This document shows positions 38,971-56,495 of a stretch of 64,000 nt of DNA, one piece after another. The notes below the pieces were generated by a model, which had not been told where the DNA came from, did not search any database, and saw only the letters and a program-made list of their open reading frames with translations. Both the position numbers and the translations under genes were made by a program. The stretch is from Fischerella sp. PCC 9431 (GTDB lineage Bacteria > Cyanobacteriota > Cyanobacteriia > Cyanobacteriales > Nostocaceae), in the NCBI RefSeq assembly GCF_000447295.1, contig NZ_KE650771.1, forward strand, positions 2,807,240-2,871,239, given 5' to 3'. Every line of letters starts with the position of its first letter. Position 1 is the first letter of the stretch.

Positions 38971-40719
38971 TTAAAGCTGCCATAGCTTAATAGTTTTATC
39001 CCTGCTGCCACTTACAATTATTTGTGCAACAGGGTTGACAACAACAGTAGTTACTGAGTCCCCATGTCCAGTGAGAGTAGCAATTTCTTCTCCTGTACGG
39101 ACTCTCCAAAGCTTGAGTTTATTGTCTCTACTTCCACTAATTAGCGTTTCGCCATCAGCGCTAAAAGCTACTGCTAGAACAGACCAGGAATGGCCTAGTA
39201 GTGTGTGAGTTACCTGACCAGTATTTACATCCCACAATTTGATAGTGTTATCATCGCTACCAGTTGCCAAGATTTTACCGTCGGGACTGAAGGCGACTGT
39301 CGAAACTGCCCATGCATGACCCGAAAGGCTATAACATGGGCAGTTTTCAATTTTTTTCTGGGTTTGCGTGTGAAGCGAAGACAAATTCCAAAGACGAATT
39401 GTTCTGTCAAAACTAGCACTAGCAAGTAGTTGATGTTGAGGACTAAATGCAACAGCACTTACCTGTAACTGGTGTCCAGCTAAAGTCCCAATTTCTTCAC
39501 CTGTTGTGATATTCCAAAGTTTAACTGTTTTATCCCAGCTACCACTAGCTAAAATCCCCTCAAGGCTAAACGCAACTGATTTGACAGCGCTTGAGTGTCC
39601 TAAAAGGGTACAAATTTCCTCAAATGTGTTGAGATTCCATAATTTAATAGTTTTATCATCGCTTGCTGTTGCCAAAATATTTTCCTGGGAACTGAAAGCA
39701 ACTGATTTCACAGCTTGAGAATGTCCCGTTAAAGTAAATATGAGTTTGTGAGTGTTTAAATTCCACAGTTTAATAGTTTTATCATCATGACCACTGGCTA
39801 ATATTTGACAATCAGGACTAATAGCAACAGAATTTACACTACTCAAATCACTTGGATATCTAGTTAAAGTATGCAAGCATTCCTGTACATGATTTTGAAT
39901 TTTTATTTGTTCCCAAGCTAGTAGATTTTGAGGTACATAAATACCCAATGCTTGCATGACTTCATCAGCTGACTGAAAGCGATGATTCACATCAATCTCA
40001 ATCAGCTTGTTAATAATTTTGACTAAGCGATCGCTCACTTTCATGGTTAAATATTGTTGCCAAACCCAGGAGTTACTGGCAATATCAAATAAATCAAAAG
40101 GGGAAATATGGGTGAGTAAGTAAATACAGGTTACACCTAAACTATAAAGATCACTGGCAAAAACAGCTTGACCTTGCATTTGTTCTGGTGCAGCATATTC
40201 TGGACTAATTAAGCTTTTTGGCTCTGATATTTGCTGACTTGCAAGTAATTTTGCTGTACTAAAATCGACCAAAAATATATTTCCTTTTGTGAACTTACCA
40301 GAAGAACTCAAAATAATATTTTCCGGTTTAATATCACCGTGAATCAGGTTGCGATCGCTAATAAATTTAATCACGGGTAACAAACTTTCTAAAAGTTGCC
40401 AAATTTGAGTTTCATCAAAAGTTCCCTGTTCTTCTAGCAACGCAGCTAAATTTTTACCCTCAATCAATTCTTGTACTAAATAAAAGTATTCATTTTCGGC
40501 AAAATATGATATTAATTCAGGAATTTGTGGGTATTTGCCCAATTCCTCTAATCGCTGTGCTAGTTGTCCAAAATTTTCAGGTGTATGATTTTGTTTTGCA
40601 AATTGTTGCACAACACAAAAAAATGGGAGAGATTGACCTTCATCTACAGCGAGAAAAGTTTGACAATCTCCCCCTTGACCAATTTGTTTAATGAAGCGAT
40701 AGCGTTCGTGTAGTAACAC
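38971..40719 (-). CDS. WD40-repeat protein with degenerate Ser/Thr kinase domain
   Basis: The N-terminal ~270 residues have the fold of a Hanks-type kinase and the C-terminal ~300 residues contain seven WD40 repeats, enough for one complete beta-propeller. The kinase part is unusual. The ATP-binding lysine of the VVKQ motif is a glutamine (CVVQQF). The alpha-C glutamate appears lost (FGQLAQRLEEL). HRD has become HGD (LIHGDIKPENI) and DFG has become DFS (LVDFSTAK). It may therefore be a pseudokinase scaffold or have an atypical mechanism. The GTG at 40719 gives MLLHERYRF, a usual opening; a TTG at 40740 is also open. No membrane segment is seen. Confidence 0.85.
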   Translation of the reverse strand: MLLHERYRFIKQIGQGGDCQTFLAVDEGQSLPFFCVVQQFAKQNHTPENFGQLAQRLEELGKYPQIPELISYFAENEYFYLVQELIEGKNLAALLEEQGTFDETQIWQLLESLLPVIKFISDRNLIHGDIKPENIILSSSGKFTKGNIFLVDFSTAKLLASQQISEPKSLISPEYAAPEQMQGQAVFASDLYSLGVTCIYLLTHISPFDLFDIASNSWVWQQYLTMKVSDRLVKIINKLIEIDVNHRFQSADEVMQALGIYVPQNLLAWEQIKIQNHVQECLHTLTRYPSDLSSVNSVAISPDCQILASGHDDKTIKLWNLNTHKLIFTLTGHSQAVKSVAFSSQENILATASDDKTIKLWNLNTFEEICTLLGHSSAVKSVAFSLEGILASGSWDKTVKLWNITTGEEIGTLAGHQLQVSAVAFSPQHQLLASASFDRTIRLWNLSSLHTQTQKKIENCPCYSLSGHAWAVSTVAFSPDGKILATGSDDNTIKLWDVNTGQVTHTLLGHSWSVLAVAFSADGETLISGSRDNKLKLWRVRTGEEIATLTGHGDSVTTVVVNPVAQIIVSGSRDKTIKLWQL

Positions 40720-40758
40720 TATTTTGAAATCACAGGACAATTGTTTATTATTCAGTTC

Positions 40759-40806
40759 GTAGTCAGCACTTTAGTGCTTAAAACTGAGCGTTAAAACGCT
40801 CACTAC
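40759..40806. repeat. Double-hairpin palindromic element
   Basis: GTAGT and ACTAC flank two perfect short palindromes, AGCACTTTAGTGCT and GAGCGTTAAAACGCTC. The element sits between the SPFH gene and the downstream WD40 gene and could act as an attenuating or processing site. Confidence 0.6.
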
Positions 40807-40818
40807 AAACTAATTTTT

Positions 40819-43014
40819 CTAACCAACATTTCCATCCAACGGAAAATCAACAACCACGGGTGAATTACCATTTGGTTGAACTGGTTCTGGTTCAGTAATT
40901 GGTGATTTCGGCTGCAACGGTGATATGACTTCGCCTGGTTTAGCTGTTTGATTCCAGAGAATCATCGAAAGCAAACCATCTACCAAACCGTTGCTAGTCC
41001 CATTGTTAGCACCAACTAAGACATCGGGGATGAGACGAACGTGGCGATCGCCTATAATTTGCATCAACTGCATAGCTGTGTAACCCTGTGAACCCAAGGC
41101 TTCCACACCAGCACGGTATGCTTCTGCTTTGGCGTTACCAGTAGCACGGATGGCTTCGGCTTCAGCAAGGCTTTTGAGTCGTAGAGATTGGGCTTCTGCA
41201 TCGGCTCTTAAGCGAATGGCTTCGGCTTCACCTGTGGTTTCTTTAACTTTGGCATTTGCTTTGAGTTCGGCAATTTTCACACCTTGCTCAGACTTCACCG
41301 CTTCTTGCTGAATGTCAGCCTTAGCTTTCAATTCAGCAATCATCACGCCCTGCTCAGACTTCACCATATCTTGTTGGATATCAGCCAAAGCTGTTTCTCG
41401 TACCAGTTGCTGTCTCTGAGTTTGCGCCTGCTGCTGAACTTCAAAAGTTTTACGCTGTTCTTCGGCAATTTTCCGGTCTGTCTGCGTTTGCATCAACGTT
41501 GCTGGCGGTTGAATATCACCAATCAAGGTATCGATCGCCTGTACATCATAAGCCCGCAGCGCTACTCTAATAAAATCGGCGGCTTCTGCTTGCCGTTCGC
41601 TACGGGCGCTCAAGAAATCTAGTACGGTGTAATCTTGGGCTGAGTTGCGGAAATAGTTACCAATCGTTGGTTCCAATACATGGTCTACTAAATTCTGCAT
41701 CGAACCTACACGAGAAATTACCTTGGGAGCATCCAAAGCACCAACGTGAATAATTTGGGCAATTTCCAAGTCAAAAGCAAACCCGTCTTTGGAACGTACT
41801 GTTAAAGAGCCAAGTTTGGCATCATAATTATGGCGTTCAGTGCGACCCGACCAATTTAAAACAATATTGGTTGTTGGCACTAATTCAATTTTCATGATGC
41901 GGCTATTGACGGGGTGCTTACCTGGATACAGGGGTTCTATCCAAACACCTTTGTGTCCTTGATTAACTAAGTTCCCGTGGGTAAAAGCTGCACCACTCAC
42001 GTCTTCATGAGCCATACCGACAAACGAAATCACTACACCCACATAACCAATCGGAATTTCTGTCATCGGTACTTGCTCAACTTGGACAAACCAAGGATTC
42101 AAGTTCCAAGAACCAGAAAGCAAAATCTGTTCTTGCAAACCCCGACGTCCGCCACCATCAATAAATCTTTGTCCATTTTGGAAGTTATCGTGAGCAGCAA
42201 TCACTGGACCAGCAATTTCACCGCCAGGAATCGGAAGACCATCTAAAGTTGTAACGATACCAACTTTGTCTCCAGCCACACTATACACCCGCAACTGTTC
42301 TGGACTCATGCCATGTTTGTTGGCGTTAGCTGCTGTGATCACCTTAAATAGGGCGGTGTTGATTCGGTAAGTACCAGCTGTAAGAAAACCCATTTGTCGC
42401 CCTTTTTCCCCGCCATGAGTCAGGAATTTCCGGGCGTCTTGAAAATTATCGCATTCTACAACCTTGCCCAAAATACGTTCCGGTGGGGTATGGGTGCCAT
42501 CTTCCGCTACAATCAGAGCAATTTCACCTTGAGGAACAACAACCACTGACTCTTTTTTGACTGAGTATTGCCAAGGCCAATAGCCCCAGTGCCAACCAGG
42601 AGCTAGAGTATCAGCTTGAAAACCAGCTTCGCCGTTCATGGCGATTAAACGTCCGGCGGGAAGTCCACGTCCAGAAATCGTAAATTTTTTAATAACAATG
42701 CCAACTTCTCGTTCACCAATCACAACCAGTCCGCCAAAAAACAAGGGGACAAAAATCACAACACCACCCACAACAATAATAGGGACAACTCCCCAGGGTG
42801 ACACACCTGAAAGTTGAACAGTCGTTGGTTGTGTCTGCTGTATTTGGGTTGGAATTGAGGCGAATTCTTGCGGAATAGCTTTCTTAATCGGATTAGCGCT
42901 AGCCGTATGAATGCTACCAGCTAAAGTCAAAGTTGTGATTACAGATGCTGCGAAACGAAGTATCTTATTTTGCTTTTGTTTACTTTTATTAGAGGAATCT
43001 TGTGAGCCTTCCAT
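40819..43014 (-). CDS. SPFH/flotillin-like membrane protein
   Basis: This 731-residue protein has an N-terminal hydrophobic segment (FAASVITTLTLAGSIHTASA) and a strong membrane segment near 74-98 (GVVPIIVVGGVVIFVPLFFGGLVV). An SPFH/band-7-type domain follows, with GEREVGIVIKKF, APGWHWG and later VRSKDGFAFDLEIAQIIHV. Between about 550 and 660 lies a long charged helix with near-repeated segments (DIQQDMVKSEQGVMIAELKA and DIQQEAVKSEQGVKIAELKA, then AEAEAIRATGNAKAEA). This arrangement is that of flotillin-like scaffolds, which oligomerise on membrane microdomains. The Pro-rich C-terminus is variable. The function in this organism is unknown. Confidence 0.85.
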   Translation of the reverse strand: MEGSQDSSNKSKQKQNKILRFAASVITTLTLAGSIHTASANPIKKAIPQEFASIPTQIQQTQPTTVQLSGVSPWGVVPIIVVGGVVIFVPLFFGGLVVIGEREVGIVIKKFTISGRGLPAGRLIAMNGEAGFQADTLAPGWHWGYWPWQYSVKKESVVVVPQGEIALIVAEDGTHTPPERILGKVVECDNFQDARKFLTHGGEKGRQMGFLTAGTYRINTALFKVITAANANKHGMSPEQLRVYSVAGDKVGIVTTLDGLPIPGGEIAGPVIAAHDNFQNGQRFIDGGGRRGLQEQILLSGSWNLNPWFVQVEQVPMTEIPIGYVGVVISFVGMAHEDVSGAAFTHGNLVNQGHKGVWIEPLYPGKHPVNSRIMKIELVPTTNIVLNWSGRTERHNYDAKLGSLTVRSKDGFAFDLEIAQIIHVGALDAPKVISRVGSMQNLVDHVLEPTIGNYFRNSAQDYTVLDFLSARSERQAEAADFIRVALRAYDVQAIDTLIGDIQPPATLMQTQTDRKIAEEQRKTFEVQQQAQTQRQQLVRETALADIQQDMVKSEQGVMIAELKAKADIQQEAVKSEQGVKIAELKANAKVKETTGEAEAIRLRADAEAQSLRLKSLAEAEAIRATGNAKAEAYRAGVEALGSQGYTAMQLMQIIGDRHVRLIPDVLVGANNGTSNGLVDGLLSMILWNQTAKPGEVISPLQPKSPITEPEPVQPNGNSPVVVDFPLDGNVG

Positions 43015-43210
43015 ATATTTGCCCCTCTGGGCAACTAATTATCTAACGTATCACTTCACTTAAATTTCCCCGAATTTCTTAAACTTGTTGTAATTTTGAC
43101 AAAAGTTTACTAATAACCAAAAGTACACGCAAAATTTCTCGGTGTGCATCATTTTGCATGATGGTCGATATCTAAAAACCCGGTTTATAGAAAGAAGATT
43201 AAAGGTTTTG

Positions 43211-45910
43211 CTACACCGTACCCTTACGAATCATTTCAAAACCATATACATAAATGTCTGCAAATTTATAGCGTTGCTCCTTTTCACGCCATTCAGCAAG
43301 ACCAATTTCGCTCAGAAAATCCGCAAAATCGTCAAATTGTAATATATCCTGTGCTGATCTATGCCATATATTTTGCAATTCTTCTCTTGACAAAAGAGCT
43401 GAGACATCCTTAAGAGAGTCAAAGAATTGACTCAAATGAGGATATTCCTCTTTAATCGCATCACACCGTTCTTCTGATGCTTTCTTCAATCCCATTTCCA
43501 AAGATGTTGCTCGAAGTAAACGGTCTGTAGGAGATTTAATTGAGGATTGTCCTTTGTAACTTAACTCTTGTTCTTTTGCTCCTTTAAGCAATATGCTCAA
43601 ACTTCGAGGAAAAGTAGTACCACTTGAGTCAGTTAAGCGTTCATACACCCATCGAGATACATACTTAGCTTTATTTCCACTTCTTCGACGACTTCCCCAA
43701 AGCAATTCTAAGGCTCGATCAATAGCTTCTTCATTGGCTTGATCAATACTCTCAATAGGAGAAAATCGATCAACCAAGTTTTTAAATTTTTCTGATTGAA
43801 TTGCTTGTCGTAGTGCTAATCGCAGAAAGTCAATTCTAGTCCACTGCAAGAGAATATCACGCCCATTAAAATGGCTTTTATTATCAAAACTTAGGCGATT
43901 CCAAATATCTTCTCTTAAAAATATTTTAAATTTAATTGCTGTCAATCGACGAGCATCACAAGACTGCAAAAATTGGAATAAACCTGTTAAGGCTTTTTGT
44001 CTAACCTCTCCTTCTTCAGGGAAATCTTCATCTAAATCATCATAAAGGAACCAAAGCATTTGAGATTGGTTCCTCGCTTTTTCATTAACAATATCTATTG
44101 CATCCTTAACTATAAGTTGCAAACGAGAATCAGTAGATAATTGTAGTAATGCTTGAGTGTGTTCATACTGCCATTTTTCAGCCGAGAGATTATTTATTAT
44201 TGGTTTTAAATCACTAAATTTTTGACCTTGTTTACCTCTAGGGAAACTGAAATATTGTCTTTGAAATGCTCTTAGAAGTAAATAAGCTCTCCAAAAAGCT
44301 TCCCATGAGCCACCATTCTGTTGTAATTCGTGATTAATGACTCGAAATTCATCACGAGATGGGCGATTATCATTAAATCTACCATGAGATGACAAACAAA
44401 CTGTATTATCTAATCGGCTACGAGCCAATTGTTGAGCAACATCATAATGTTTTAGTAAAAGCCAATAAAGAGCCGTTTTGCCAGTTCCTTTCCTACCTCT
44501 AATTAGACAAGTAGTATCATCTAAAAACCTGTCAAAATCAGTAGTGCGTTGAAATAGTAAGCTGAGATTTTGCTTTTGGTCAGCAGCATTTACTTCCGGA
44601 AATTGAAAATTTTCAATAATTTCCCAGCGACTATCTGTGCTATTTAAAACCGTTTTTCGTTTTAGTTCATCGGTTTCTTCATCGATTAAATTAGCAATTC
44701 GAGTGTAATAATCTGATAATGCTGTTACAGGATAGTTATCAGCCAAAGCAATGAGGGAAAGGTAAGGAACTACTAATGGCTCTGGGGGGTCAGATTGAGA
44801 ATCAGATGAATCTGGTTCACTGCCATTAGTTTCATCTTCATTAATTTCATCGTTTTCATCGGTTTTATAATTAATCTTTTCATACAAGCCCTTCCAAATT
44901 TTTCGGACTTTAGCCATCCCACTTTCAGTAACATCTGGGACTGGAGTAAAAACAAAATTTATTGATATATTTTTTAAAACTTGAAGTGATTGTAGAAGTA
45001 AATCAATCCCTTGTCGATTTTGCTCATTAGGAAATAAAAATACAATAACTTCATCACCCACTTGTAACAATGAAAAAGCTCCCCATTGATTAATTCCTGT
45101 TCTTGAATCAACCAAAAGAATATCAGGTTTCAACTGTTCTTGAATTTCACGACTAAAAATAGACCAAAGATTTTCACCACTATCAATAACAGTAGTAGCT
45201 CGTAGATCATCAACTTTAGAAATATAATCCAAGTTTAGAGAACCAGCAGGAACAACAAATAATCTGCCTGTGGCGTTAGGTATTCTCACCTCGCCAAATA
45301 TTTGAGCAATTGAAATACTAGGATTACTACCTTCTGGTAAATACGAACGCTCATAAAAATAGTCAACAATTCCATAGCTTGGTTGTGGATTTAAGTTGAA
45401 TGCTGTACTCAAACCAGGTGCTTCTAAATCTAAATCAACAGCCACAACTTTACGACCACGCATCGCTAGAATCCAAGCAACATGAGTTAACGCAGTTGTT
45501 CGACCGACTCCTCCTTTAAAGGAATAAAATGTTACCGTTCTAGGTACATGCGGTCCACGCTGGTTAACTTGAGATTGATTTTGAGGATTTGCTGCGTGTA
45601 GAGCTAAATCTTGCCAAGTGTATACTGAAGCTCCGTTAACAACTTGTGGACGCGAAATATTTAGTGATTCTGCTTCTTGAAGTGTATATAGGGAGAGAAA
45701 ACCTGGCGATAAATGAGGAACTTGTGATTGCAGCAAACTTAGCACTTGCTCTTTGCGCTGAGGTATGGATAAACCAACAAAGCGATCGCTCACAATGCTC
45801 AAATTTACCAAGCCGGACGTAGAAATATTCATCTCAAGCCACTCATGCGGATTTTTTATATACACTTCTGTAATTTGCTGCTTGAGTGACCCTTGCCAAG
45901 TTTGCTGCAT
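43211..45910 (-). CDS. KGGVGR-motif ParA-like ATPase with second P-loop domain
   Basis: This 899-residue protein has at least three parts. Residues about 8-85 resemble a BolA-type fold (LSIVSDRFVGLSIPQRKEQV). Residues about 125-370 form a MinD/ParA-like domain with the variant P-loop FYSFKGGVGRTTA at about 130-139, DLDLEAPG, and LLVDSRTGIN. An acidic linker (about 375-400) leads to a second domain with the P-loop RGRKGTGKTALYW near 475 and FLYDDLDEDFP as Walker B, an AAA/STAND-like ATPase. KGGVGR ATPases are known from predicted NTP-dependent conflict systems. The ATG at 45910 is chosen because AAGGAGG lies six bases upstream, overlapping the stop of the HEPN-like gene. Its role is not established. 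Confidence 0.8.
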   Translation of the reverse strand: MQQTWQGSLKQQITEVYIKNPHEWLEMNISTSGLVNLSIVSDRFVGLSIPQRKEQVLSLLQSQVPHLSPGFLSLYTLQEAESLNISRPQVVNGASVYTWQDLALHAANPQNQSQVNQRGPHVPRTVTFYSFKGGVGRTTALTHVAWILAMRGRKVVAVDLDLEAPGLSTAFNLNPQPSYGIVDYFYERSYLPEGSNPSISIAQIFGEVRIPNATGRLFVVPAGSLNLDYISKVDDLRATTVIDSGENLWSIFSREIQEQLKPDILLVDSRTGINQWGAFSLLQVGDEVIVFLFPNEQNRQGIDLLLQSLQVLKNISINFVFTPVPDVTESGMAKVRKIWKGLYEKINYKTDENDEINEDETNGSEPDSSDSQSDPPEPLVVPYLSLIALADNYPVTALSDYYTRIANLIDEETDELKRKTVLNSTDSRWEIIENFQFPEVNAADQKQNLSLLFQRTTDFDRFLDDTTCLIRGRKGTGKTALYWLLLKHYDVAQQLARSRLDNTVCLSSHGRFNDNRPSRDEFRVINHELQQNGGSWEAFWRAYLLLRAFQRQYFSFPRGKQGQKFSDLKPIINNLSAEKWQYEHTQALLQLSTDSRLQLIVKDAIDIVNEKARNQSQMLWFLYDDLDEDFPEEGEVRQKALTGLFQFLQSCDARRLTAIKFKIFLREDIWNRLSFDNKSHFNGRDILLQWTRIDFLRLALRQAIQSEKFKNLVDRFSPIESIDQANEEAIDRALELLWGSRRRSGNKAKYVSRWVYERLTDSSGTTFPRSLSILLKGAKEQELSYKGQSSIKSPTDRLLRATSLEMGLKKASEERCDAIKEEYPHLSQFFDSLKDVSALLSREELQNIWHRSAQDILQFDDFADFLSEIGLAEWREKEQRYKFADIYVYGFEMIRKGTV

Positions 45911-45921
45911 TTTCATCCTCC

Positions 45922-46353
45922 TTACAGTGAAGAGGCTTGCTTGTGTAACCACTTTATGAGGCGCTGATATTTATCTAACCAACTTTTGTAGCTTGCATCA
46001 TCAGGCTCACTGCAACAATAGCGCATATCTATAAAATGTTGACTAGGATTTTCAATTTCATCCAGCCATTTTCTAACTTCTGGAAACTTATCTACTCGTG
46101 ACCTTAACCGATTATGGCGATTTAGAGCCTCAGTATAGCTATGTTTTGGGTTCGTGATTGTATGTCCGGGATCATTAGAGTCTGTCTTCCATTCCGGACT
46201 CGTTCCCTTCGGGAGAGCGGCAAGAATCATTGACTTTAGGAGGCACTCAATAGTAATACCACCAAAGTGCATGGCAGCTATTTTTCTTCCAGCTTGATGC
46301 AGTTTATCAGTATCAATATGACGATTTAGAAAAGCTGCTTGGTAATCTTCCAT
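45922..46353 (-). CDS. HEPN-like small protein, coupled to the KGGVGR ATPase
   Basis: This 143-residue, mostly helical protein resembles the HEPN group in layout: an N-terminal helix, FGGITIECLLKSMIL in the middle, and C-terminal DMRYCCSEPDDASYKSWLDKYQRLIKWL. A canonical R-x4-6-H nuclease motif is not clear. HRHNRLRSR could be a degenerate form, so it may be non-catalytic. The ATG at 46353 is preferred to the in-frame GTG at 46359. Its TAA stop overlaps the ribosome-binding site of the ATPase gene, 12 bases before that start, so translation is coupled. Pairing with an ATPase is typical of defence and toxin-antitoxin modules, but this is inference. Confidence 0.6.
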   Translation of the reverse strand: MEDYQAAFLNRHIDTDKLHQAGRKIAAMHFGGITIECLLKSMILAALPKGTSPEWKTDSNDPGHTITNPKHSYTEALNRHNRLRSRVDKFPEVRKWLDEIENPSQHFIDMRYCCSEPDDASYKSWLDKYQRLIKWLHKQASSL

Positions 46354-46480
46354 ACTCACTAAAAATGAATTTGATTCTTACTAGGTATTATCAAATAAGA
46401 ACCACAGCCATTTAGAATAAGAGTAAAAATTTTACATTAAGCTTATATTACATTAATTTTTATAAAATCTAATACTCACT

Positions 46481-50377: not shown

Positions 50378-50418
50378 GTTGGAAGATTTATGGAGAATTC
50401 AGTTTTAGGGGTTTGAAG

Positions 50419-50607
50419 TTAGAACTTTCGGGTTCAAAGCTAGAACTTTCAAGTTCAAAGCTAGAACTTTCAAGTTCAAAGCTAGAACTTTCGGGTTCAA
50501 AGCTAGAAATTTCAGGTTCAAAGCTAGAACTTTCAGGTTCAAAGCTAGAACTTTCGGGTTCAAAGCTAGAACTTTCAGGTTCAAAACTAGAACTTCCAAG
50601 TTCAAAA
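50419..50607. repeat. Tandem array of nine 21-bp units (CTAGAACTTTCNNGTTCAAAG)
   Basis: Nine full 21-bp units, [CT]TAGAACTTTC followed by two variable purines and GTTCAAA[AG], plus a partial tenth, run without spacers. Each unit has a GAAC...GTTC inverted repeat. Reading frames stay open on both strands because the period is divisible by three; on the plus strand it would encode a KLELSGS-type heptapeptide repeat. There is no start codon or ribosome-binding site for this, so it is treated as non-coding. Confidence 0.93.
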
Positions 50608-50667
50608 CTAGAATCCCACGATCAATAACCCAGAATGAAATTAGAACAGTTACGCCAGACTACTGCT

Positions 50668-50865: not shown

Positions 50866-51513
50866 ATGGATGAATTCAAAGCGCAAATCCTCCAGCTTGT
50901 TCGAGAAGCTTGTCAGCAACCCAGAGATAGTTTAGAACGCAAAAGGAAGCTAAATAAAATTATTTATCTGATTCAAAAGTCAGGTAAACTTTTACGGGTT
51001 AATGGTGTACCTGATGCTGAGGAAGCTTTACAGCAAACTTGGATATATTTCTGTCAAAATCTCTGTGAAGCCACAACTGCTAAGGAAGCCTACAATCCAG
51101 ATAAAGGTTGTGTGACATCCTGGTTAAATATTTATCTGAATTATCGTCTGAAAGATATTTACCGCAAAATCAAAGAAACTCAGCTCAAAACCATTTCTCC
51201 AATCACAGGAGAAAATGGTGAAGAAATAGATCCGATAGATTTAATTCCTGTAAGGGATGAACCATATCCAATCATCAAAGATATTCAAGAATGGCTGACA
51301 ACAGAAGCGAAGAAATTACAGCGTATTCATATTAGCGATCGCCCTGATGTTAATTGTCAAGTTTTGATTGAACGTCGTTTTATTTTAGAAGTTGCTTGGA
51401 AAGAAATCTCACGAGATTTTGGTGTGTCGATTCCTACTCTCAGTGGTTTCTATCAAAGAAAATGTCTGCCGATTTTGGAAGAGTTTTGTAAATCCCAAGG
51501 CTATTTTGATTAA
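50866..51513 (+). CDS. ECF-like sigma-70 family factor
   Basis: This 215-residue protein has a sigma region 2-like segment (AEEALQQTWIYFCQNLCEA, then VTSWLNIYLNYRLKDIYRK). It ends in a helix-turn-helix region 4-like segment (RRFILEVAWKEISRDFGVSIPTLSGFYQRK). It lacks regions 1 and 3, as in ECF-type factors. In cyanobacteria, such factors frequently precede DUF1822 and CHAT genes, and here they do so with gaps of 36 and 83 bases. It probably directs RNA polymerase to a small regulon controlled by the downstream proteins. The start is ATG 50866. Confidence 0.85.
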   Translation: MDEFKAQILQLVREACQQPRDSLERKRKLNKIIYLIQKSGKLLRVNGVPDAEEALQQTWIYFCQNLCEATTAKEAYNPDKGCVTSWLNIYLNYRLKDIYRKIKETQLKTISPITGENGEEIDPIDLIPVRDEPYPIIKDIQEWLTTEAKKLQRIHISDRPDVNCQVLIERRFILEVAWKEISRDFGVSIPTLSGFYQRKCLPILEEFCKSQGYFD

Positions 51514-51549
51514 CTGTATTCACTGTATTTGAAGTTTAAGTTTACAACT

Positions 51550-52707
51550 ATGAATTACATCACTGAACGTCCAACTATATCTATCCCGATTTCTGAAGAA
51601 TTCCGAGAAAATGCCCTCCAATTTGCCAGAGAACAACCAACACAAACAAAAGCCAGACAAGTCTATTTAAATACTTTAGCTGTTCAGGTAGTTAATACTT
51701 ATTTGCAAATGCTAGAAATTCCTACTGAGTTGGAATCTAGCTATAGTTGGAATCCTTATAGAAGGTTAATTGATAATGTTGCGGATTTGGTGTTGACTGG
51801 GGTAGGACACTTGGAATGTCGAGCTATTCGCACAGGCGATCGCGTTTGTGAAATTCCGCCAGAAGTATGGAACGATCGCATTGGTTATGTAGTTGTCGAA
51901 ATTAATCAAACTTGTAAAGAAGGTAAAATCTGGGGATTTTTACCTCATGTCGCAACTGAAGAAATTGATATTAATCAGTTATATTTATTGGATGAATTAA
52001 TTGAGCGATCGCATCTAGTTTATTTGCGAAAATGGTTAGAAAATATCTATGCAACCGAGTGGCAAACAGTTGAAGAATTTAGCCGGGAAAGAAAACATCA
52101 ATTTACTTATCGCTCTATTAAACGTGTCCGAGGATTGAAATTAGAATCACCAGATATTGTCTGGCAAATTATCGAGCAATTATACCCCAATCATAGTTGG
52201 CAAAAATGTTTACCAACGAAATTTTTGTCAAAAAAGTTCAATAATCGTCGTGAAAATATTGAGATCAATAGTAATAGTCATCTTTCATCCGAACTTCTTG
52301 ATGTTTTAGTTTATTTAATTCAAACTACCGAAGATGAAGAAACACGTTGGACTCTTGCAGAAATTTTGTGGACTCTCCAACCTAATCATCCTGCTGTGAG
52401 TGCTAGACGCATCATGGATTTGGGGATGCAGTTAGATAATAGTGCTGTAGCTTTGATGGTAGCGGTTTTATCTAAACCAGATCAAACAGTCGCTGTGTTA
52501 TTGCGGGTTTATCCGATGAATAATGCTTATTTACCATCAGGTTTACAATTAGCAGGATTATACGATAATGGACAGCCATTTTTAGAAGCTCAAGCTAGAG
52601 AAGAAGATGATTATATTCAATTAAAATTTTGTGCAGAATTTGGTGAAAGATTCCAAGTTAGGGTTGCTTTAAATGATGCTGTGATCACGGAAAATTTTGT
52701 GATTTAG
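51550..52707 (+). CDS. DUF1822 family protein
   Basis: This 385-residue protein opens with ERPTISIPISEEFRENALQFA and contains KARQVYLNTLAVQVVNTYLQML and CEIPPEVWNDRIGYVVVEIN, all typical of DUF1822 proteins found in cyanobacterial sigma-factor/CHAT loci. No membrane segment or known catalytic motif is visible. The C-terminal part (TRWTLAEILWTLQPNHPAV and VALMVAVLSKPDQTVAVLLRVYP) resembles the stress-linked beta domain seen in this family. The biochemical role is unknown; it could be an anti-sigma or adaptor protein. The ATG at 51550 is preferred to an in-frame TTG at 51529. Confidence 0.85.
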   Translation: MNYITERPTISIPISEEFRENALQFAREQPTQTKARQVYLNTLAVQVVNTYLQMLEIPTELESSYSWNPYRRLIDNVADLVLTGVGHLECRAIRTGDRVCEIPPEVWNDRIGYVVVEINQTCKEGKIWGFLPHVATEEIDINQLYLLDELIERSHLVYLRKWLENIYATEWQTVEEFSRERKHQFTYRSIKRVRGLKLESPDIVWQIIEQLYPNHSWQKCLPTKFLSKKFNNRRENIEINSNSHLSSELLDVLVYLIQTTEDEETRWTLAEILWTLQPNHPAVSARRIMDLGMQLDNSAVALMVAVLSKPDQTVAVLLRVYPMNNAYLPSGLQLAGLYDNGQPFLEAQAREEDDYIQLKFCAEFGERFQVRVALNDAVITENFVI

Positions 52708-52790
52708 CTCTGGATGATTCGTTGGCGATTGAGCAGTAATTTCTAATTATGACATTACCTTAAATATTGAGTTATCACGGGGTAAAAAAT

Positions 52791-55700
52791 GTGGTGAAGC
52801 GAGTTAAATTAGTCATTTTTGAAATTGGAGAGGGTGCTTTCGAGAGGGGATTTCCTGTGAAAGTCAGAATTGGTGAAGCTGGGAAACCTCATATCGCCGA
52901 GATTTATGGTAGATTACCACCTGCACCAGATATTCCGAAAACATACACTGTATGGCAATCGATTTATGAGAAATTAGAAGCAAATTGGTTGATTATTATC
53001 CCGAAAAACCAGATTACAAACTTCTCTAGCAAAGGTGCTTGTAATCAAGCTGCTCAACAATTTAAAGATAGTTTCAACCACTGGTTAAATCAACCATCTG
53101 TTTTAGAAGTAGAACGAAAATTATCAAAACAAATTGGTAATTCTGAAGATGTTCGCTTTATTTTACAGACTCAAGATTCATTGCTGCGAAGATTACCTTG
53201 GCATTTATGGGATTTTTTATCTACTAGCCATCCCCAAGCCGAAATAGTCATTAGTTCCGAGTATGAACCTTCGACAAAGCAACTGAAAGTACCAGTCAAA
53301 ATTTTGGCGATTTTAGGTATTAATGAAGGAATTGATCTTCAACAAGATTTAGATTCTCTTCATAATTTACCAGGTGCAAAAGTTGAACCTTTAATCGAAC
53401 CTACACGTCGCCAGTTGATTGAAAAGTTGAGAAATCAATCTTGGGATATTTTATTTTTTGCTGGACACAGTTGCAGCCAAGAAGATGACAGCGAGGGAAC
53501 AATTAAAATTAATCAACATGAAAGCATTTCCTTAAAAAATTTGCGTTATTCTCTCCGATATGCTGTAAAAAAGGGATTAAAATTAGCAATTTTTAACTCT
53601 TGTGATGGGCTAGGATTAGCCCGCAATTTAGCTAATTTGCGTATTCCCTATACTATCGTTATGCGGGAACCAGTACCTGATGTTATCGCTCAAGAGTTTT
53701 TAAAATATTTTCTCACAGCATTTAGTAGTGGTGAATCTTTATATACATCTGTAAATCAAGCGCGGGAACGCTTACATGAAGAGTGGGAAAAAGAATATCC
53801 TTGTGCTTCTTGGCTACCTGTAATTTTTCAGAATCCAGCTGCGAGAGAACTCAAATATCCTCGTATTCTCAATTGGAAAGAAAAGGCTTTTCGTGCAGCT
53901 ATTGTGACAGTTTCGCTGGGGTGTGTTGGTACAGTTTTATGGCGTGGAATTGATGAAATTAACTTTCGTAATCGTTTTAGCTATGGCAATAAAATTTTAG
54001 TCAAAACAGTAGAAACTGAATCTAAAAAACAAGGTATACAAGCATTCTCTAGAAAAAATTATAATCTAGCAATTAATAAGTTTGAAAAATCTTTGCAAAT
54101 TCAGCCCAATGATCCAGAGTCATTAATATATCTGAATAATGCCAAGATTGGCGCTCATGAAGCATTAACAATAGGAGTTGCAGTTCCAATTGGTACAAAT
54201 CCTGATGTTGCCCAAGAAATTTTGCGAGGAGTAGGACAATATCAAGATGAAATTAATCACAAAGGTGGTATTGATGGCAAATTATTAAAGGTAGAAATAG
54301 TTAATGATGATAATAATTCTGCTGTTGCTGAAAGAGTTGCTCATAAATTTGTAGAAGATAAAAAAATCTTAGCAGTAGTGGGACATAATAGCAGTGATGC
54401 TAGTGTTCCTGCTTCTAAAATTTATCAGGATGGAAAATTGGTGATGATTTCACCAACTAGTTCTTCTCTATCGCTAACTGATACCCAAAATCGCAGTGAT
54501 AACATTTATATTTACAGAACTGTAGTTGGAAATGATGTGATTGCTGAAACTTTAGTAGAGTATGCAAAAAAATTAGGTAAAACTCATATTGCTATCTGTC
54601 GTGATTCTCAAGCAAAAGATCAGTCTTATGAACGTGCAATAGTTGCAGCACTTGGCAAAAATAACTCTCAATTAATTAAAATTGACTGCGATTTTGCAGC
54701 TAAAAATTTTCAGCCAAAAGTTGCCATTGCACGTGCGAAAGAAAAAAAAGCCGATAGTATATTTCTAAATCCTCATGTTGACAGAATTGATAAAGCAATA
54801 GAAGTTGCTAAAGCGAATCAAGGGGAATTCATGCTATTTGGTAATCCCAGTATGCAGACTAAAAAAACCTTGATGGCTGGTAAAGCTGTTAACAATTTAG
54901 TGATGGCTGTTCCTTGGCACGCCGATGCTTCTGCTAACAAAAACTTTGTCGAAGCTGCTTATAAAAGATGGCATAATCCAGAGTCTATTACTTGGCGCAC
55001 AGCAAATGCTTATGATGCGACAAACACAATTGCTCAAGCATTAATGCAAAACGATAACACTAGAGATGGTATCCAAAAAGCTTTATCTAATAATTTTTCT
55101 TTAGAAGGTGCTACGGGAACTATTCAATTTTTATCCTGGGGCGATCGCATTGGTACGGCGGTATTAGTAGAAGTCAAATCTGATACGAAAAATACAAGTC
55201 ACAACAGATTTGTACTCAAAGACTCTATTTTTAATCGTCTCAGCTTGGGGGATAAAATTTTAGTTAAAGATCATCTCAGTAGCGATAAAAAAGCAGGTGT
55301 GGACGCTTTTGCTAAGGAGAAGTATGATCAGGCGATCGCATATTTTCAAAAATATCTGCAAAAAATACCCAACGACCCCGAAACACACATATACTTACAA
55401 AATGCTCTTGCTGCTCGTCATGGCAAAGTTTTAAAAATAGCTGTTAGTGTTCCGATTGGTAGTAATATCAATGTTGCCAAAGAAATATTACAAGGTGTAG
55501 CCCAAGCTCAAAATGAAGTTAATCATCAAGGTGGTATTAAAGGATATTTGTTGCAAATACAAATAGCTAATGATGACAATGATCCTGATATTTCTAAACA
55601 ACTCGCCAAGTTTTTTATTAAAAACAAGCAGATTCTCGCAGTTATAGGTCATAATGCTTCTGATGCTTCTGTCGCAGCTTGTAAAGTTTACGAAGAAGGG

Positions 55701-56495
55701 AAACTAGTTAATATTTCTCCTACTAGTTTTTCGCTGAAATTATCGGGATGTGGTTTCTATGTATTTCGCACTTCTCCTAATCTGCGTTTTTTAGCTGATT
55801 CTGTTGCTCACTATGCAATTAATTCTGCTGGGATAAACAAATTGGCAATTTGTGTAGATGAAAAAGCGATAGATAATCAATCTTTTCGCGATGAATTTAC
55901 TTCTTCTACTATCGCTGGTGGTGGAAGTATTGTGAATATTAATTGTGATTTTTCAGCACCAGATTTTAATCCGCAAACAGTTATTACTGATGCAATTAGT
56001 AATGGTGCTACAGGTTTATTTTTAGCTCCTCATATAGATAGAATTAGTAAAGCTCTAGATCTAGCCAAAGCCAATCAAGGAAAACTCAAATTATTTGCCA
56101 GCACTTCACTATATACTCTACAAACTCTACAAAAAGGACAAGCTGATGTAAATGGTTTAGTGTTAGCTGTTCCTTGGGAAATTAGAAGTAATATAGAAAG
56201 TGAATTTAGTAAAAACTCTCAGAAACTTTGGAGTAACTTAGTTACTTGGCGTTCAGCGACAAGTTACGATGCAACTGTAGCCATTATTAAAGGTTTACAG
56301 CAAAATAAAACTCGCGACGGACTGCAACAAGTCTTGCGTAATCCCAAGTTTTCAGCTAATGGTGCGACTGGGAAAATCCAGTTTTTACAATCAGGCGATC
56401 GCTATATTCAAAACAAAAATGATATTGTCTTAGTTCAAATTCAACCAAGTCCTAAATCTGCAAATAAATATGAATTTTTCCCTTTATCTCCTTAA
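52791..56495 (+). CDS. Membrane-anchored CHAT protease with duplicated TPR plus substrate-binding sensor modules
   Basis: Residues 1-360 form a CHAT (caspase-like) peptidase domain. Its catalytic His is H226 in FFAGHSC and its catalytic Cys is C271 in FNSCDGLG. One membrane segment follows at about 364-386 (AAIVTVSLGCVGTVLW). The rest, likely outside the cytoplasm, is an internal duplication. TPR-like helices (about 415-453) lead to a type I substrate-binding domain (about 457-803), and a second TPR-like part (about 834-873) leads to a second binding domain (about 881-1233). Both copies show VPIGxNxxVAxEIL, AVVGHNSSDAS/AVIGHNASDAS and GKLVxISPTS. The GTG at 52791 is chosen; it is 8 bases after GGGG. 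The protein is the last gene of the sigma/DUF1822 cassette. Confidence 0.88.
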   Translation: MVKRVKLVIFEIGEGAFERGFPVKVRIGEAGKPHIAEIYGRLPPAPDIPKTYTVWQSIYEKLEANWLIIIPKNQITNFSSKGACNQAAQQFKDSFNHWLNQPSVLEVERKLSKQIGNSEDVRFILQTQDSLLRRLPWHLWDFLSTSHPQAEIVISSEYEPSTKQLKVPVKILAILGINEGIDLQQDLDSLHNLPGAKVEPLIEPTRRQLIEKLRNQSWDILFFAGHSCSQEDDSEGTIKINQHESISLKNLRYSLRYAVKKGLKLAIFNSCDGLGLARNLANLRIPYTIVMREPVPDVIAQEFLKYFLTAFSSGESLYTSVNQARERLHEEWEKEYPCASWLPVIFQNPAARELKYPRILNWKEKAFRAAIVTVSLGCVGTVLWRGIDEINFRNRFSYGNKILVKTVETESKKQGIQAFSRKNYNLAINKFEKSLQIQPNDPESLIYLNNAKIGAHEALTIGVAVPIGTNPDVAQEILRGVGQYQDEINHKGGIDGKLLKVEIVNDDNNSAVAERVAHKFVEDKKILAVVGHNSSDASVPASKIYQDGKLVMISPTSSSLSLTDTQNRSDNIYIYRTVVGNDVIAETLVEYAKKLGKTHIAICRDSQAKDQSYERAIVAALGKNNSQLIKIDCDFAAKNFQPKVAIARAKEKKADSIFLNPHVDRIDKAIEVAKANQGEFMLFGNPSMQTKKTLMAGKAVNNLVMAVPWHADASANKNFVEAAYKRWHNPESITWRTANAYDATNTIAQALMQNDNTRDGIQKALSNNFSLEGATGTIQFLSWGDRIGTAVLVEVKSDTKNTSHNRFVLKDSIFNRLSLGDKILVKDHLSSDKKAGVDAFAKEKYDQAIAYFQKYLQKIPNDPETHIYLQNALAARHGKVLKIAVSVPIGSNINVAKEILQGVAQAQNEVNHQGGIKGYLLQIQIANDDNDPDISKQLAKFFIKNKQILAVIGHNASDASVAACKVYEEGKLVNISPTSFSLKLSGCGFYVFRTSPNLRFLADSVAHYAINSAGINKLAICVDEKAIDNQSFRDEFTSSTIAGGGSIVNINCDFSAPDFNPQTVITDAISNGATGLFLAPHIDRISKALDLAKANQGKLKLFASTSLYTLQTLQKGQADVNGLVLAVPWEIRSNIESEFSKNSQKLWSNLVTWRSATSYDATVAIIKGLQQNKTRDGLQQVLRNPKFSANGATGKIQFLQSGDRYIQNKNDIVLVQIQPSPKSANKYEFFPLSP

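What the first reader, a model, noticed from the sequence alone, without database searches (positions are those of the whole stretch)
50866..56495. Sigma factor / DUF1822 / membrane CHAT protease cassette: candidate ligand-gated proteolytic signalling system
Three plus-strand genes lie together with gaps of 36 and 83 bases. The last encodes a CHAT peptidase domain with clear His and Cys (H226, C271), one membrane segment, and two tandem extracytoplasmic TPR plus substrate-binding modules. The first is an ECF-like sigma factor. I infer that ligand binding outside could activate the CHAT protease, which would cleave DUF1822 or another regulator and free the sigma factor. The association of these three families is known in cyanobacteria; the two-fold sensor on a CHAT protease looks unusual.
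Basis: partly seen in the sequence, partly recalled or inferred. Interest (0 to 1): 0.8.

Follow-up and report, generated by a model that had tools for sequence, protein, structure and literature searches.

The report
Nutrient-receptor-like protease beside a sigma factor
A cyanobacterial three-gene unit in which a membrane protein, with two nutrient-receptor-like modules predicted to lie outside the cell and a caspase-like protease predicted to lie inside, sits beside a gene switch (a sigma factor) and its probable partner, so a chemical signal outside may be turned into gene expression by cutting a protein; the gene trio was already described, and the doubled receptor on it is a conserved variant.

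Summary
Three plus-strand genes encode a weak ECF-type sigma factor, a DUF1822 protein and a CHAT protease with one membrane segment and two TPR plus Peripla_BP_6 (Leu/Ile/Val-type) modules. The association is real: in 12 whole genomes, 44 of 52 CHAT genes of this type have DUF1822 upstream, against 0 of 26 weaker CHAT matches. It is also in print as a computational prediction (Kaur et al. 2021: EACC2-caspase, ECF sigma, DUF1822, variable sensors). The protease part folds like separase and the Craspase protease Csx29, with His and Cys invariant in 57 of 57. Added here: the tandem receptor recurs in 9 named genomes; its modules are separate recruitments, not an internal duplication; the receptor module also occurs free, on a caspase and on kinases; and DUF1822 is usually beside a sigma-70-like gene when this CHAT gene is absent (13 of 15 loci). 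Best reading: an envelope receptor-protease controlling a sigma/DUF1822 pair. That DUF1822 is the cleaved inhibitor is plausible by analogy with Csx29-Csx30-sigma, but unshown; a DdvA-like reading, with the receptor itself as anti-sigma factor, stays open. New variant of a known kind.

The parts
50866..51513 (+). ECF-like sigma-70 family protein, 215 aa (divergent)
   Evidence: TIGR02937 E=0.0054 over residues 47-193, below cut-off; 10 of 37 family members, this one among them, match TIGR02937 at E<=0.01, best 1.6e-7, and 4 of 37 match Pfam Sigma70_r2; some proteins in the same position beside other DUF1822 genes score above the TIGR02937 cut-off
51550..52707 (+). DUF1822 protein, 385 aa
   Evidence: PF08852 304 bits; model pLDDT 84.5, pTM 0.60, N-terminal alpha/beta part, helical middle, C-terminal beta sandwich
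52791..56495 (+). EACC2-like + CHAT protease + TM + two TPR/Peripla_BP_6 modules (1234 aa from GTG 52791; 1242 aa from TTG 52767)
52791..53141 (+). N-terminal alpha+beta part before CHAT (position of the 'EACC2' domain of Kaur et al. 2021; boundary approximate)
   Evidence: no family of its own in Pfam; secondary structure of the model; domain name taken from PMC8195603, identity not tested
53142..53837 (+). CHAT peptidase domain (boundary approximate)
   Evidence: PF12770 matches residues 197-349 = 53355-53813; Foldseek matches separase, Csx29, SAVED-CHAT
53466..53468 (+). putative catalytic His codon (H226 from GTG 52791)
   Evidence: invariant in 18 of 18 and 57 of 57
53601..53603 (+). putative catalytic Cys codon (C271 from GTG 52791)
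   Evidence: invariant in 18 of 18 and 57 of 57
53886..53942 (+). single predicted membrane segment
   Evidence: hydropathy scan
54009..54131 (+). TPR-like stretch 1 (approximate)
   Evidence: TPR_2 match, residues 422-449
54150..55184 (+). Peripla_BP_6 module 1 (residues 462-806)
55284..55418 (+). TPR-like stretch 2 (approximate)
   Evidence: TPR_1 match, residues 847-870
55419..56480 (+). Peripla_BP_6 module 2 (residues 885-1238)

Best explanation
The unit is a receptor-protease-sigma signalling cassette of the EACC2/CHAT kind. A single-pass membrane protein holds two Leu/Ile/Val-type binding modules outside the cytoplasm and a caspase-like CHAT protease inside. Binding of one or two small solutes is transmitted through the TPR stalk and the membrane helix and switches the protease on (or off). 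The protease then acts on the DUF1822 protein, which is the standing partner and probable inhibitor or holder of the ECF-like sigma factor, so that the sigma factor is freed or enabled to transcribe its regulon. Shown here: the conserved gene unit, the invariant His/Cys pair and protease fold, the conservation of both receptor modules, the exchange of the same receptor module among CHAT, caspase, kinase and free forms, and the sigma-DUF1822 pairing with or without this CHAT gene. Inferred: topology, ligand binding, gating, proteolysis, DUF1822 as substrate, sigma release.
For: Synteny: in 12 genomes 44 of 52 CHAT matches over 150 bits have DUF1822 upstream on the same strand within 3 kb, against 0 of 26 weaker CHAT matches; 43 of 67 DUF1822 genes have such a CHAT gene downstream. 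In 15 stretches holding 16 of the other 24 DUF1822 genes, 13 of 15 have a sigma-70-like protein directly upstream, and three of those 13 have another peptidase next door (double trypsin-like in L200, TPR-CHAT in L207 and L209). Protease: model pLDDT 86.5, pTM 0.87, matches separase and Csx29 (8eey_B E 9.1e-10, TMq 0.59), dyad 57 of 57. Receptor: free, CHAT, Peptidase_C14 and Pkinase carriers; the tree needs at least 8 changes of the CHAT label. Distance correlations over 38 cassettes: DUF1822-CHAT 0.70, sigma-DUF1822 0.49, sigma-CHAT 0.34, as expected if DUF1822 touches both, though shared descent alone can give such values. Precedent: Csx29, a CHAT protease, cleaves Csx30, which binds and inhibits an ECF-like sigma factor (PMC10028731, abstract and passages). 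Proteolytic control with CHAT proteins among the neighbours was proposed for ECF54 (PMC8999054, passage).
Against: No relation of DUF1822 to Csx30 or to an anti-sigma factor was found (no PDB sequence match at E<=0.1; no fold match at E<=0.001, and neither among the 50 listed). The window's own sigma protein scores below every curated cut-off. 8 of 52 CHAT genes of this type lack DUF1822 upstream. Among receptor-type CHAT genes, 2 of 20 in the first set (L055; the third gene of L061) lack DUF1822 within 4 kb and only 11 of 20 have a detected sigma. In the named set 6 of 17 lack it upstream: two have little or no room (L121, L123), L125 has 7.9 kb without it, and in L174, L176 and L186 the sigma-DUF1822 pair lies beside the gene on the other strand. 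Only 3 of 15 loci without this CHAT gene showed another peptidase next to the pair, and not all neighbours were scanned. The Tyr202 and Glu226 of LivJ are not kept in module 1 (alignment; their role is recalled), so ligand binding is not assured. The membrane segment is weak in this protein.
Confidence: 0.5

Rival explanations
1. The CHAT-membrane-receptor protein is itself the membrane anti-sigma factor (DdvA-like): it holds the sigma factor at the membrane by binding, ligand binding releases it, and proteolysis is secondary or absent. DUF1822 is a co-factor or adaptor.
For: Foldseek links the modelled N-terminal 380 residues to the transmembrane anti-sigma factor DdvA (8rot_A E 3.1e-6, TMq 0.45; 8rw5 E 1.8e-5). 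[quoted passage not shown]
Against: The match to proteases is better (Csx29 8eey_B TMq 0.59; human separase 0.54-0.56), and the His/Cys pair is invariant in 57 of 57, unexpected for a mere binding scaffold. A sigma-like gene stays beside DUF1822 in 13 of 15 loci without this CHAT gene, and sigma-CHAT is the lowest of the three distance correlations. No anti-sigma family is among the 13 Pfam matches of the protein. The layout of DdvA itself was not read: two searches of the library listed no paper on its structure.
Confidence: 0.2
2. A counter-invader or programmed-death module as Kaur et al. framed it: the CHAT protease is an effector switch that autoprocesses or cleaves cellular targets on a danger signal, with the sigma factor as one arm of the response.
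For: The same gene set is described as an EACC2 system among conflict systems of multicellular bacteria (PMC8195603, section 9 read whole). One relative fuses a LuxR/sigma-4-like HTH, TRADD-like_N and DUF1822 in front of the CHAT gene (L112); others carry nSTAND1 (L073, L099).
Against: This variant carries solute-binding modules, probably facing outward, that are conserved between genera nearly as well as the protease, more like a nutrient or signal receptor. No PADLOC model matched convincingly (best E 0.0033).
Confidence: 0.2
3. The receptor works by clustering: ligand state changes oligomerisation, and DUF1822 is processed or bound as an effector in its own right rather than as a sigma inhibitor.
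For: The C-terminal half of DUF1822 is also found behind CHAT-nSTAND1 in one protein (L099), so it can act in cis of a CHAT protein; DUF1822-CHAT is the highest distance correlation (0.70).
Against: DUF1822 is beside a sigma-70-like protein in 13 of 15 loci that lack this CHAT gene.
Confidence: 0.1

Closest known systems
EACC2-caspase / ECF sigma / DUF1822 systems (Kaur et al., eLife 2021, PMC8195603)
   Different: The main text holds no 'PBP', 'SBP', 'ANF' or 'periplasmic'; figures and supplements were not seen. Two such modules in tandem and their separate recruitment are not mentioned in what I read. The paper calls DUF1822 a TPR protein; no TPR family matched at E<=0.1 in the 8 DUF1822-bearing proteins scanned, while HEAT repeats did in some.
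EACC1 two-gene systems (Kaur et al., eLife 2020, PMC7159879)
   Same: Caspase protein with, in some instances, TM helices and a downstream extracellular periplasmic-binding-protein domain (passage).
   Different: A different constant partner (EACC1), prevalent in actinobacteria; the word 'sigma' does not occur in the main text.
Craspase: Csx29 (TPR-CHAT) - Csx30 - CASP-sigma (PMC10028731)
   Same: CHAT protease of similar fold, a sigma inhibitor as substrate, an ECF-like sigma factor.
   Different: Triggered by RNA-guided Cas7-11; no membrane receptor; DUF1822 shows no relation to Csx30 at the sensitivity used.
Cyanobacterial metacaspase with ANF-receptor domain, Nostoc punctiforme (PMC2853523)
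   Same: Caspase-superfamily protease fused to the same superfamily of binding domain (passages).
   Different: Peptidase C14 type; no sigma or DUF1822 partner mentioned in the passages read.
DdvA/DdvS of Myxococcus xanthus
   Same: Fold match of the modelled region to DdvA; control of an ECF sigma factor by a transmembrane protein.
   Different: DdvA is an anti-sigma factor by description; no anti-sigma family matched here.

Membership tests
EACC2 / ECF sigma / DUF1822 system | caspase-superfamily (CHAT) domain with intact His/Cys pair | tested here: met
EACC2 / ECF sigma / DUF1822 system | N-terminal alpha+beta EACC2 domain before the caspase | tested here: inconclusive
   An alpha+beta part is there, but no EACC2 model turned up in the library scans and the published alignment was not seen
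EACC2 / ECF sigma / DUF1822 system | adjacent ECF sigma and DUF1822 genes | tested here: met
   the sigma by family and position, not by its own score
EACC2 / ECF sigma / DUF1822 system | variable C-terminal sensor | tested here: met
   CHASE2 (L075), nSTAND1 (L073, L099), Peripla_BP_6 among relatives
ECF sigma factor | match above a curated sigma cut-off | tested here: not met
   Window protein 16.4 bits, cut-off 42.9; 10 of 37 family members reach E<=0.01. Larger proteins in the same position beside DUF1822 pass it: L195, L196, L198, L202
Peripla_BP_6 receptor | family match above gathering score, two copies | tested here: met
   208.8 bits, two stretches
Peripla_BP_6 receptor | ligand binding | not testable with these tools
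   Pocket differs from LivJ (alignment)
Craspase-type (Csx29-Csx30-sigma) | CHAT protease of Csx29 fold | tested here: met
   8eey_B E 9.1e-10, TMq 0.59
Craspase-type (Csx29-Csx30-sigma) | Csx30-like sigma inhibitor | tested here: not met
   Not among the profile matches or the 50 fold matches listed
Craspase-type (Csx29-Csx30-sigma) | Cas7-11 partner | not tested
   The genome was not searched for Cas7-11
DdvA-type membrane anti-sigma factor | recognisable anti-sigma domain | tested here: not met
   None among 13 Pfam families of the protein; an unknown anti-sigma domain is not excluded

The most novel reading that the evidence does not exclude
A two-input receptor protease: two separately recruited extracellular solute-binding modules with different pockets gate one intracellular CHAT protease, which frees a sigma factor by cleaving DUF1822. 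This would be a small-molecule counterpart of Craspase and a bacterial receptor-caspase that drives transcription instead of death. The receptor module would be a general plug-in shared among CHAT proteases, caspases and kinases in cyanobacteria.
Probability: 0.3. Interest if true: 0.78.

Novelty: new variant of a known kind. Interest (0 to 1): 0.52.

Why it matters
DUF1822 and CHAT genes of this type occur in all 12 cyanobacterial genomes that I searched for both, and side by side in 11 of the 12. Yet only two papers in the library hold the word DUF1822, one in a table of sequence differences and one as a prediction, and no passage that I read reports an experiment on them. A receptor with a recognisable solute-binding fold is the easiest version of the system to test, because candidate ligands can be screened. 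If the chain holds, it shows an outside solute controlling a sigma factor through a caspase-like protease, and gives DUF1822 a function.

Tried and rejected
Internal duplication of the receptor module: rejected. Holding modules 1 and 2 of six tandem proteins together as one clade costs 134.5 log-likelihood units, p-AU 2.5e-10 (an earlier tree, already had the window's two modules apart). Module 1 groups with single-module CHAT proteins (L118, L055, L056); module 2 of L123 falls apart from the other five, so the tandem form may have arisen twice.

DUF1822 as a Csx30 homologue or a TPR protein: no support. Its fold matches are all weak (best E 0.0023); many are beta-sandwich domains.

Defence-system assignment by PADLOC: best E-values 0.036 and 0.0033, taken as noise.

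Special closeness of the sigma to the type III-E CRISPR sigma: NF041236 matches 2 of 37 members (best E 1.4e-4), but general ECF models score better, so no special kinship is claimed.

Conserved promoter before the sigma gene: the last stretch upstream (about 80 bases) is well conserved among the window and its three closest relatives but does not align well in two more distant ones; no claim made.

Conserved cleavage site in DUF1822: the stretch 190-280 is poorly conserved and often missing; a candidate hinge, no site proposed.

Other CHAT loci of the own genome: of 13 stretches fetched (L014-L016, L018-L024) gave no relative of the query proteins and L017 only a weak CHAT match (E 3e-10); L012 and L013 hold the two other cassettes.
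Full report
What is there. Window 50866-56495 holds three plus-strand genes with gaps of 36 and 83 bases when the second starts at ATG 51550 and the third at GTG 52791. The second is a full-length DUF1822 protein (E=1.6e-90). The third carries CHAT (44.9 bits), two Peripla_BP_6 stretches (208.8 bits together) and a TPR-like stretch before each. The first is a divergent ECF-like sigma protein: no Pfam match at E<=0.1, TIGR02937 at E=0.0054 and under its cut-off. Its relatives in other cassettes align over the length where sigma regions 2 and 4 would lie (the region motifs are recalled). 10 of 37 family members, the window's among them, match TIGR02937 at E<=0.01 and 4 of 37 match Sigma70_r2. 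Some proteins in the same place beside other DUF1822 genes pass the cut-off.

The gene unit is real. The window's genome has three DUF1822 genes, and each has a CHAT gene of this type downstream. I chose 12 genomes, the window's own among them, for having few contigs; all lie in the same order. There DUF1822 is upstream, same strand, within 3 kb, of 44 of 52 CHAT matches over 150 bits to my 18-sequence profile (a few of these cover only the C-terminal part of the profile) and of 0 of 26 weaker CHAT matches (22, four rows added). 43 of 67 DUF1822 genes, neighbouring fragments merged, have such a CHAT gene downstream. In a separate set of 80 named loci found with the CHAT alignment (the best 80 of at least 561 relatives, so close kin weigh more), 69 have at least 3.2 kb upstream, and 50 of these 69 have DUF1822 within 2 kb.

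DUF1822 belongs with sigma. 24 of the 67 DUF1822 genes have no CHAT gene of this type downstream; one of the 24 is the DUF1822 half inside a CHAT-nSTAND1 protein (L099). I fetched 15 stretches that hold 16 of the 24. A sigma-70-like protein is directly upstream of DUF1822 in 13 of the 15 (L195-L203, L205-L207, L209). The strength differs: L195, L196, L198 and L202 pass the TIGR02937 cut-off; L197 matches Sigma70_r4; L199 is marginal (TIGR02937 E=3.2e-4); L200, L201, L203, L205-L207 and L209 were called by my own profile, and of these L206 had no NCBIfam match and L203 and L207 no Pfam match. L204 and L208 showed none. Another peptidase adjoins the pair in three of the 15: a double trypsin-like protein in L200, TPR-CHAT proteins in L207 and L209; not all neighbours were scanned. 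So the sigma-DUF1822 pair looks like the core, with the protease exchanged or absent. In L112 a DNA-binding HTH, a TRADD-like_N domain and DUF1822 are one protein ahead of the CHAT gene.

The protease. A model of the N-terminal 380 residues (pLDDT 86.5, pTM 0.87) matches human and fungal separases, Csx29 (8eey_B, E 9.1e-10, TMq 0.59), SAVED-CHAT and, lower down, the transmembrane anti-sigma factor DdvA (8rot_A, E 3.1e-6, TMq 0.45). His226 and Cys271 are invariant in 57 of 57. An active protease is therefore likely; activity is not shown.

The receptor. The membrane segment sits directly after CHAT. Over 36 receptor-type CHAT proteins (the window's included, L124 and one truncated protein left out) the 20 residues before it hold 4.0 K/R on average and the 20 after 2.6; the K/R count is higher before in 22, equal in 9 and lower in 5, and net charge is higher before in 34 of 36. 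This fits an inside protease and an outside receptor without proving it. Of twelve non-CHAT carriers of the module examined, nine are free proteins with an N-terminal hydrophobic stretch, one has Peptidase_C14 in front (L071) and two a Ser/Thr kinase domain (L072; L097 from the window's own genome) (six of the twelve were scanned with Pfam). On the module tree the CHAT label needs at least 8 changes, so the module has moved between carriers repeatedly; in L067 the CHAT-borne module and a neighbouring free gene are sisters (100/100).

Receptor-type cassettes. In the first set, 18 of 20 receptor-type CHAT genes, the window's included, have DUF1822 within 4 kb upstream and 11 of 20 have a sigma gene detected by my profile; L055 and the third gene of L061 have neither. 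In the named set, 11 of 17 have both; of the other six, L121 has no room and L123 2.9 kb, L125 has 7.9 kb without them, and in L174, L176 and L186 a sigma-DUF1822 pair lies beside the gene on the other strand.

The doubling. The 19 receptor-type CHAT proteins of the first set besides the window's show a single module by length and matches, one of them cut short by its stretch. In the named set nine are tandem: Westiellopsis prolifica, two Fischerella muscicola, Scytonema tolypothrichoides, two Brasilonema, a Calothrix MAG, a Leptolyngbyaceae MAG, and Calothrix sp. NIES-3974, where the N-terminal part is in a separate frame. Seven of the nine have both sigma and DUF1822 upstream; L121 and L123 are the exceptions named above. 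Identity to the window is somewhat lower for the receptor than for CHAT in the more distant ones, but of the same order (L117: 90% CHAT, 84% module 1, 90% module 2; L119: 73, 63, 65; L122: 67, 47, 59), so both modules are under constraint. The two modules are 45% identical and do not share a private ancestor (p-AU 2.5e-10). The column that pairs with LivJ Thr102 is Phe in 10 of 10 second modules and in 0 of 10 first modules, which suggests different pockets. That LivJ Ser79, Thr102, Tyr202 and Glu226 contact the ligand is recalled, not taken from a call.

How it most likely works. Receptor state controls the CHAT protease across the membrane; the protease acts on DUF1822; DUF1822 controls sigma. 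The last two steps rest on the pairing evidence and on the Craspase precedent, in which the CHAT protease Csx29 cleaves Csx30, which binds and inhibits an ECF-like sigma factor (PMC10028731, abstract and passages). DUF1822 shows no relation to Csx30, so the likeness is of wiring, not of descent. Distance correlations (DUF1822-CHAT 0.70, sigma-DUF1822 0.49, sigma-CHAT 0.34 over 38 cassettes left from 52 after near-duplicates were dropped; in the 18 receptor-type ones sigma-DUF1822 0.76, DUF1822-CHAT 0.72, sigma-CHAT 0.48, receptor against core 0.31-0.40) fit DUF1822 in the middle and a more freely exchanged receptor, but shared descent confounds them.

Known or new. The gene trio and the idea of variable sensors on an EACC2-caspase protein are in print (PMC8195603; section 9 read whole, other passages). 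EACC1 systems were noted to carry TM helices with periplasmic-binding-protein domains (PMC7159879, passages), and a metacaspase with an ANF-receptor domain was listed in 2010 (PMC2853523, passages). Figures and supplements were not seen, so a receptor of this type on EACC2 may already be drawn there. The conserved tandem form, its origin by separate recruitment, the plug-in behaviour of the receptor, and the sigma-DUF1822 pairing without the protease appear in no passage that I read; the searches were made, of one open-access library. I file it as a new variant of a known kind.

Limits. Everything is computational. Genome choices were mine and lean to one order. Sigma calls in several loci rest on my own profiles. 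No ligand, cleavage, binding or regulon has been tested.

Noticed in passing
window 50416-50613: A 21-base tandem repeat, 9.4 copies at 92% matches, lies between the TIGR04222 membrane-protein gene and the sigma gene.
   Followed up: no
window 38971-46359, minus strand: A 913-aa protein joins a KGGVGR-motif variant AAA ATPase and an Sll1717-family P-loop ATPase, next to a small protein and a 731-aa protein without NCBIfam match at E<=1e-5 and a Ser/Thr kinase: possibly a conflict or signalling module.
   Followed up: no
L112:3089-4969 (minus): One protein joins a LuxR/sigma-4-like HTH, TRADD-like_N and DUF1822 ahead of an EACC2-CHAT gene, a possible Rosetta stone for DUF1822 and DNA binding.
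   Followed up: partly
L099:537-3680 (minus): CHAT, nSTAND1, HEAT repeats and the C-terminal half of DUF1822 in one protein, showing that the DUF1822 C-terminal half is a mobile domain.
   Followed up: no
L061 and L153: Three (L061, with a 1.4-kb gap before the third) and two (L153) receptor-type CHAT genes in a row behind one DUF1822 gene, as if several receptors fed one switch.
   Followed up: no
L195, L196, L197: A 403-411 aa sigma-70 protein overlapping or abutting a DUF1822 gene, with no EACC2-CHAT gene within 3 kb, in three genomes; the other neighbours were mostly not scanned.
   Followed up: partly
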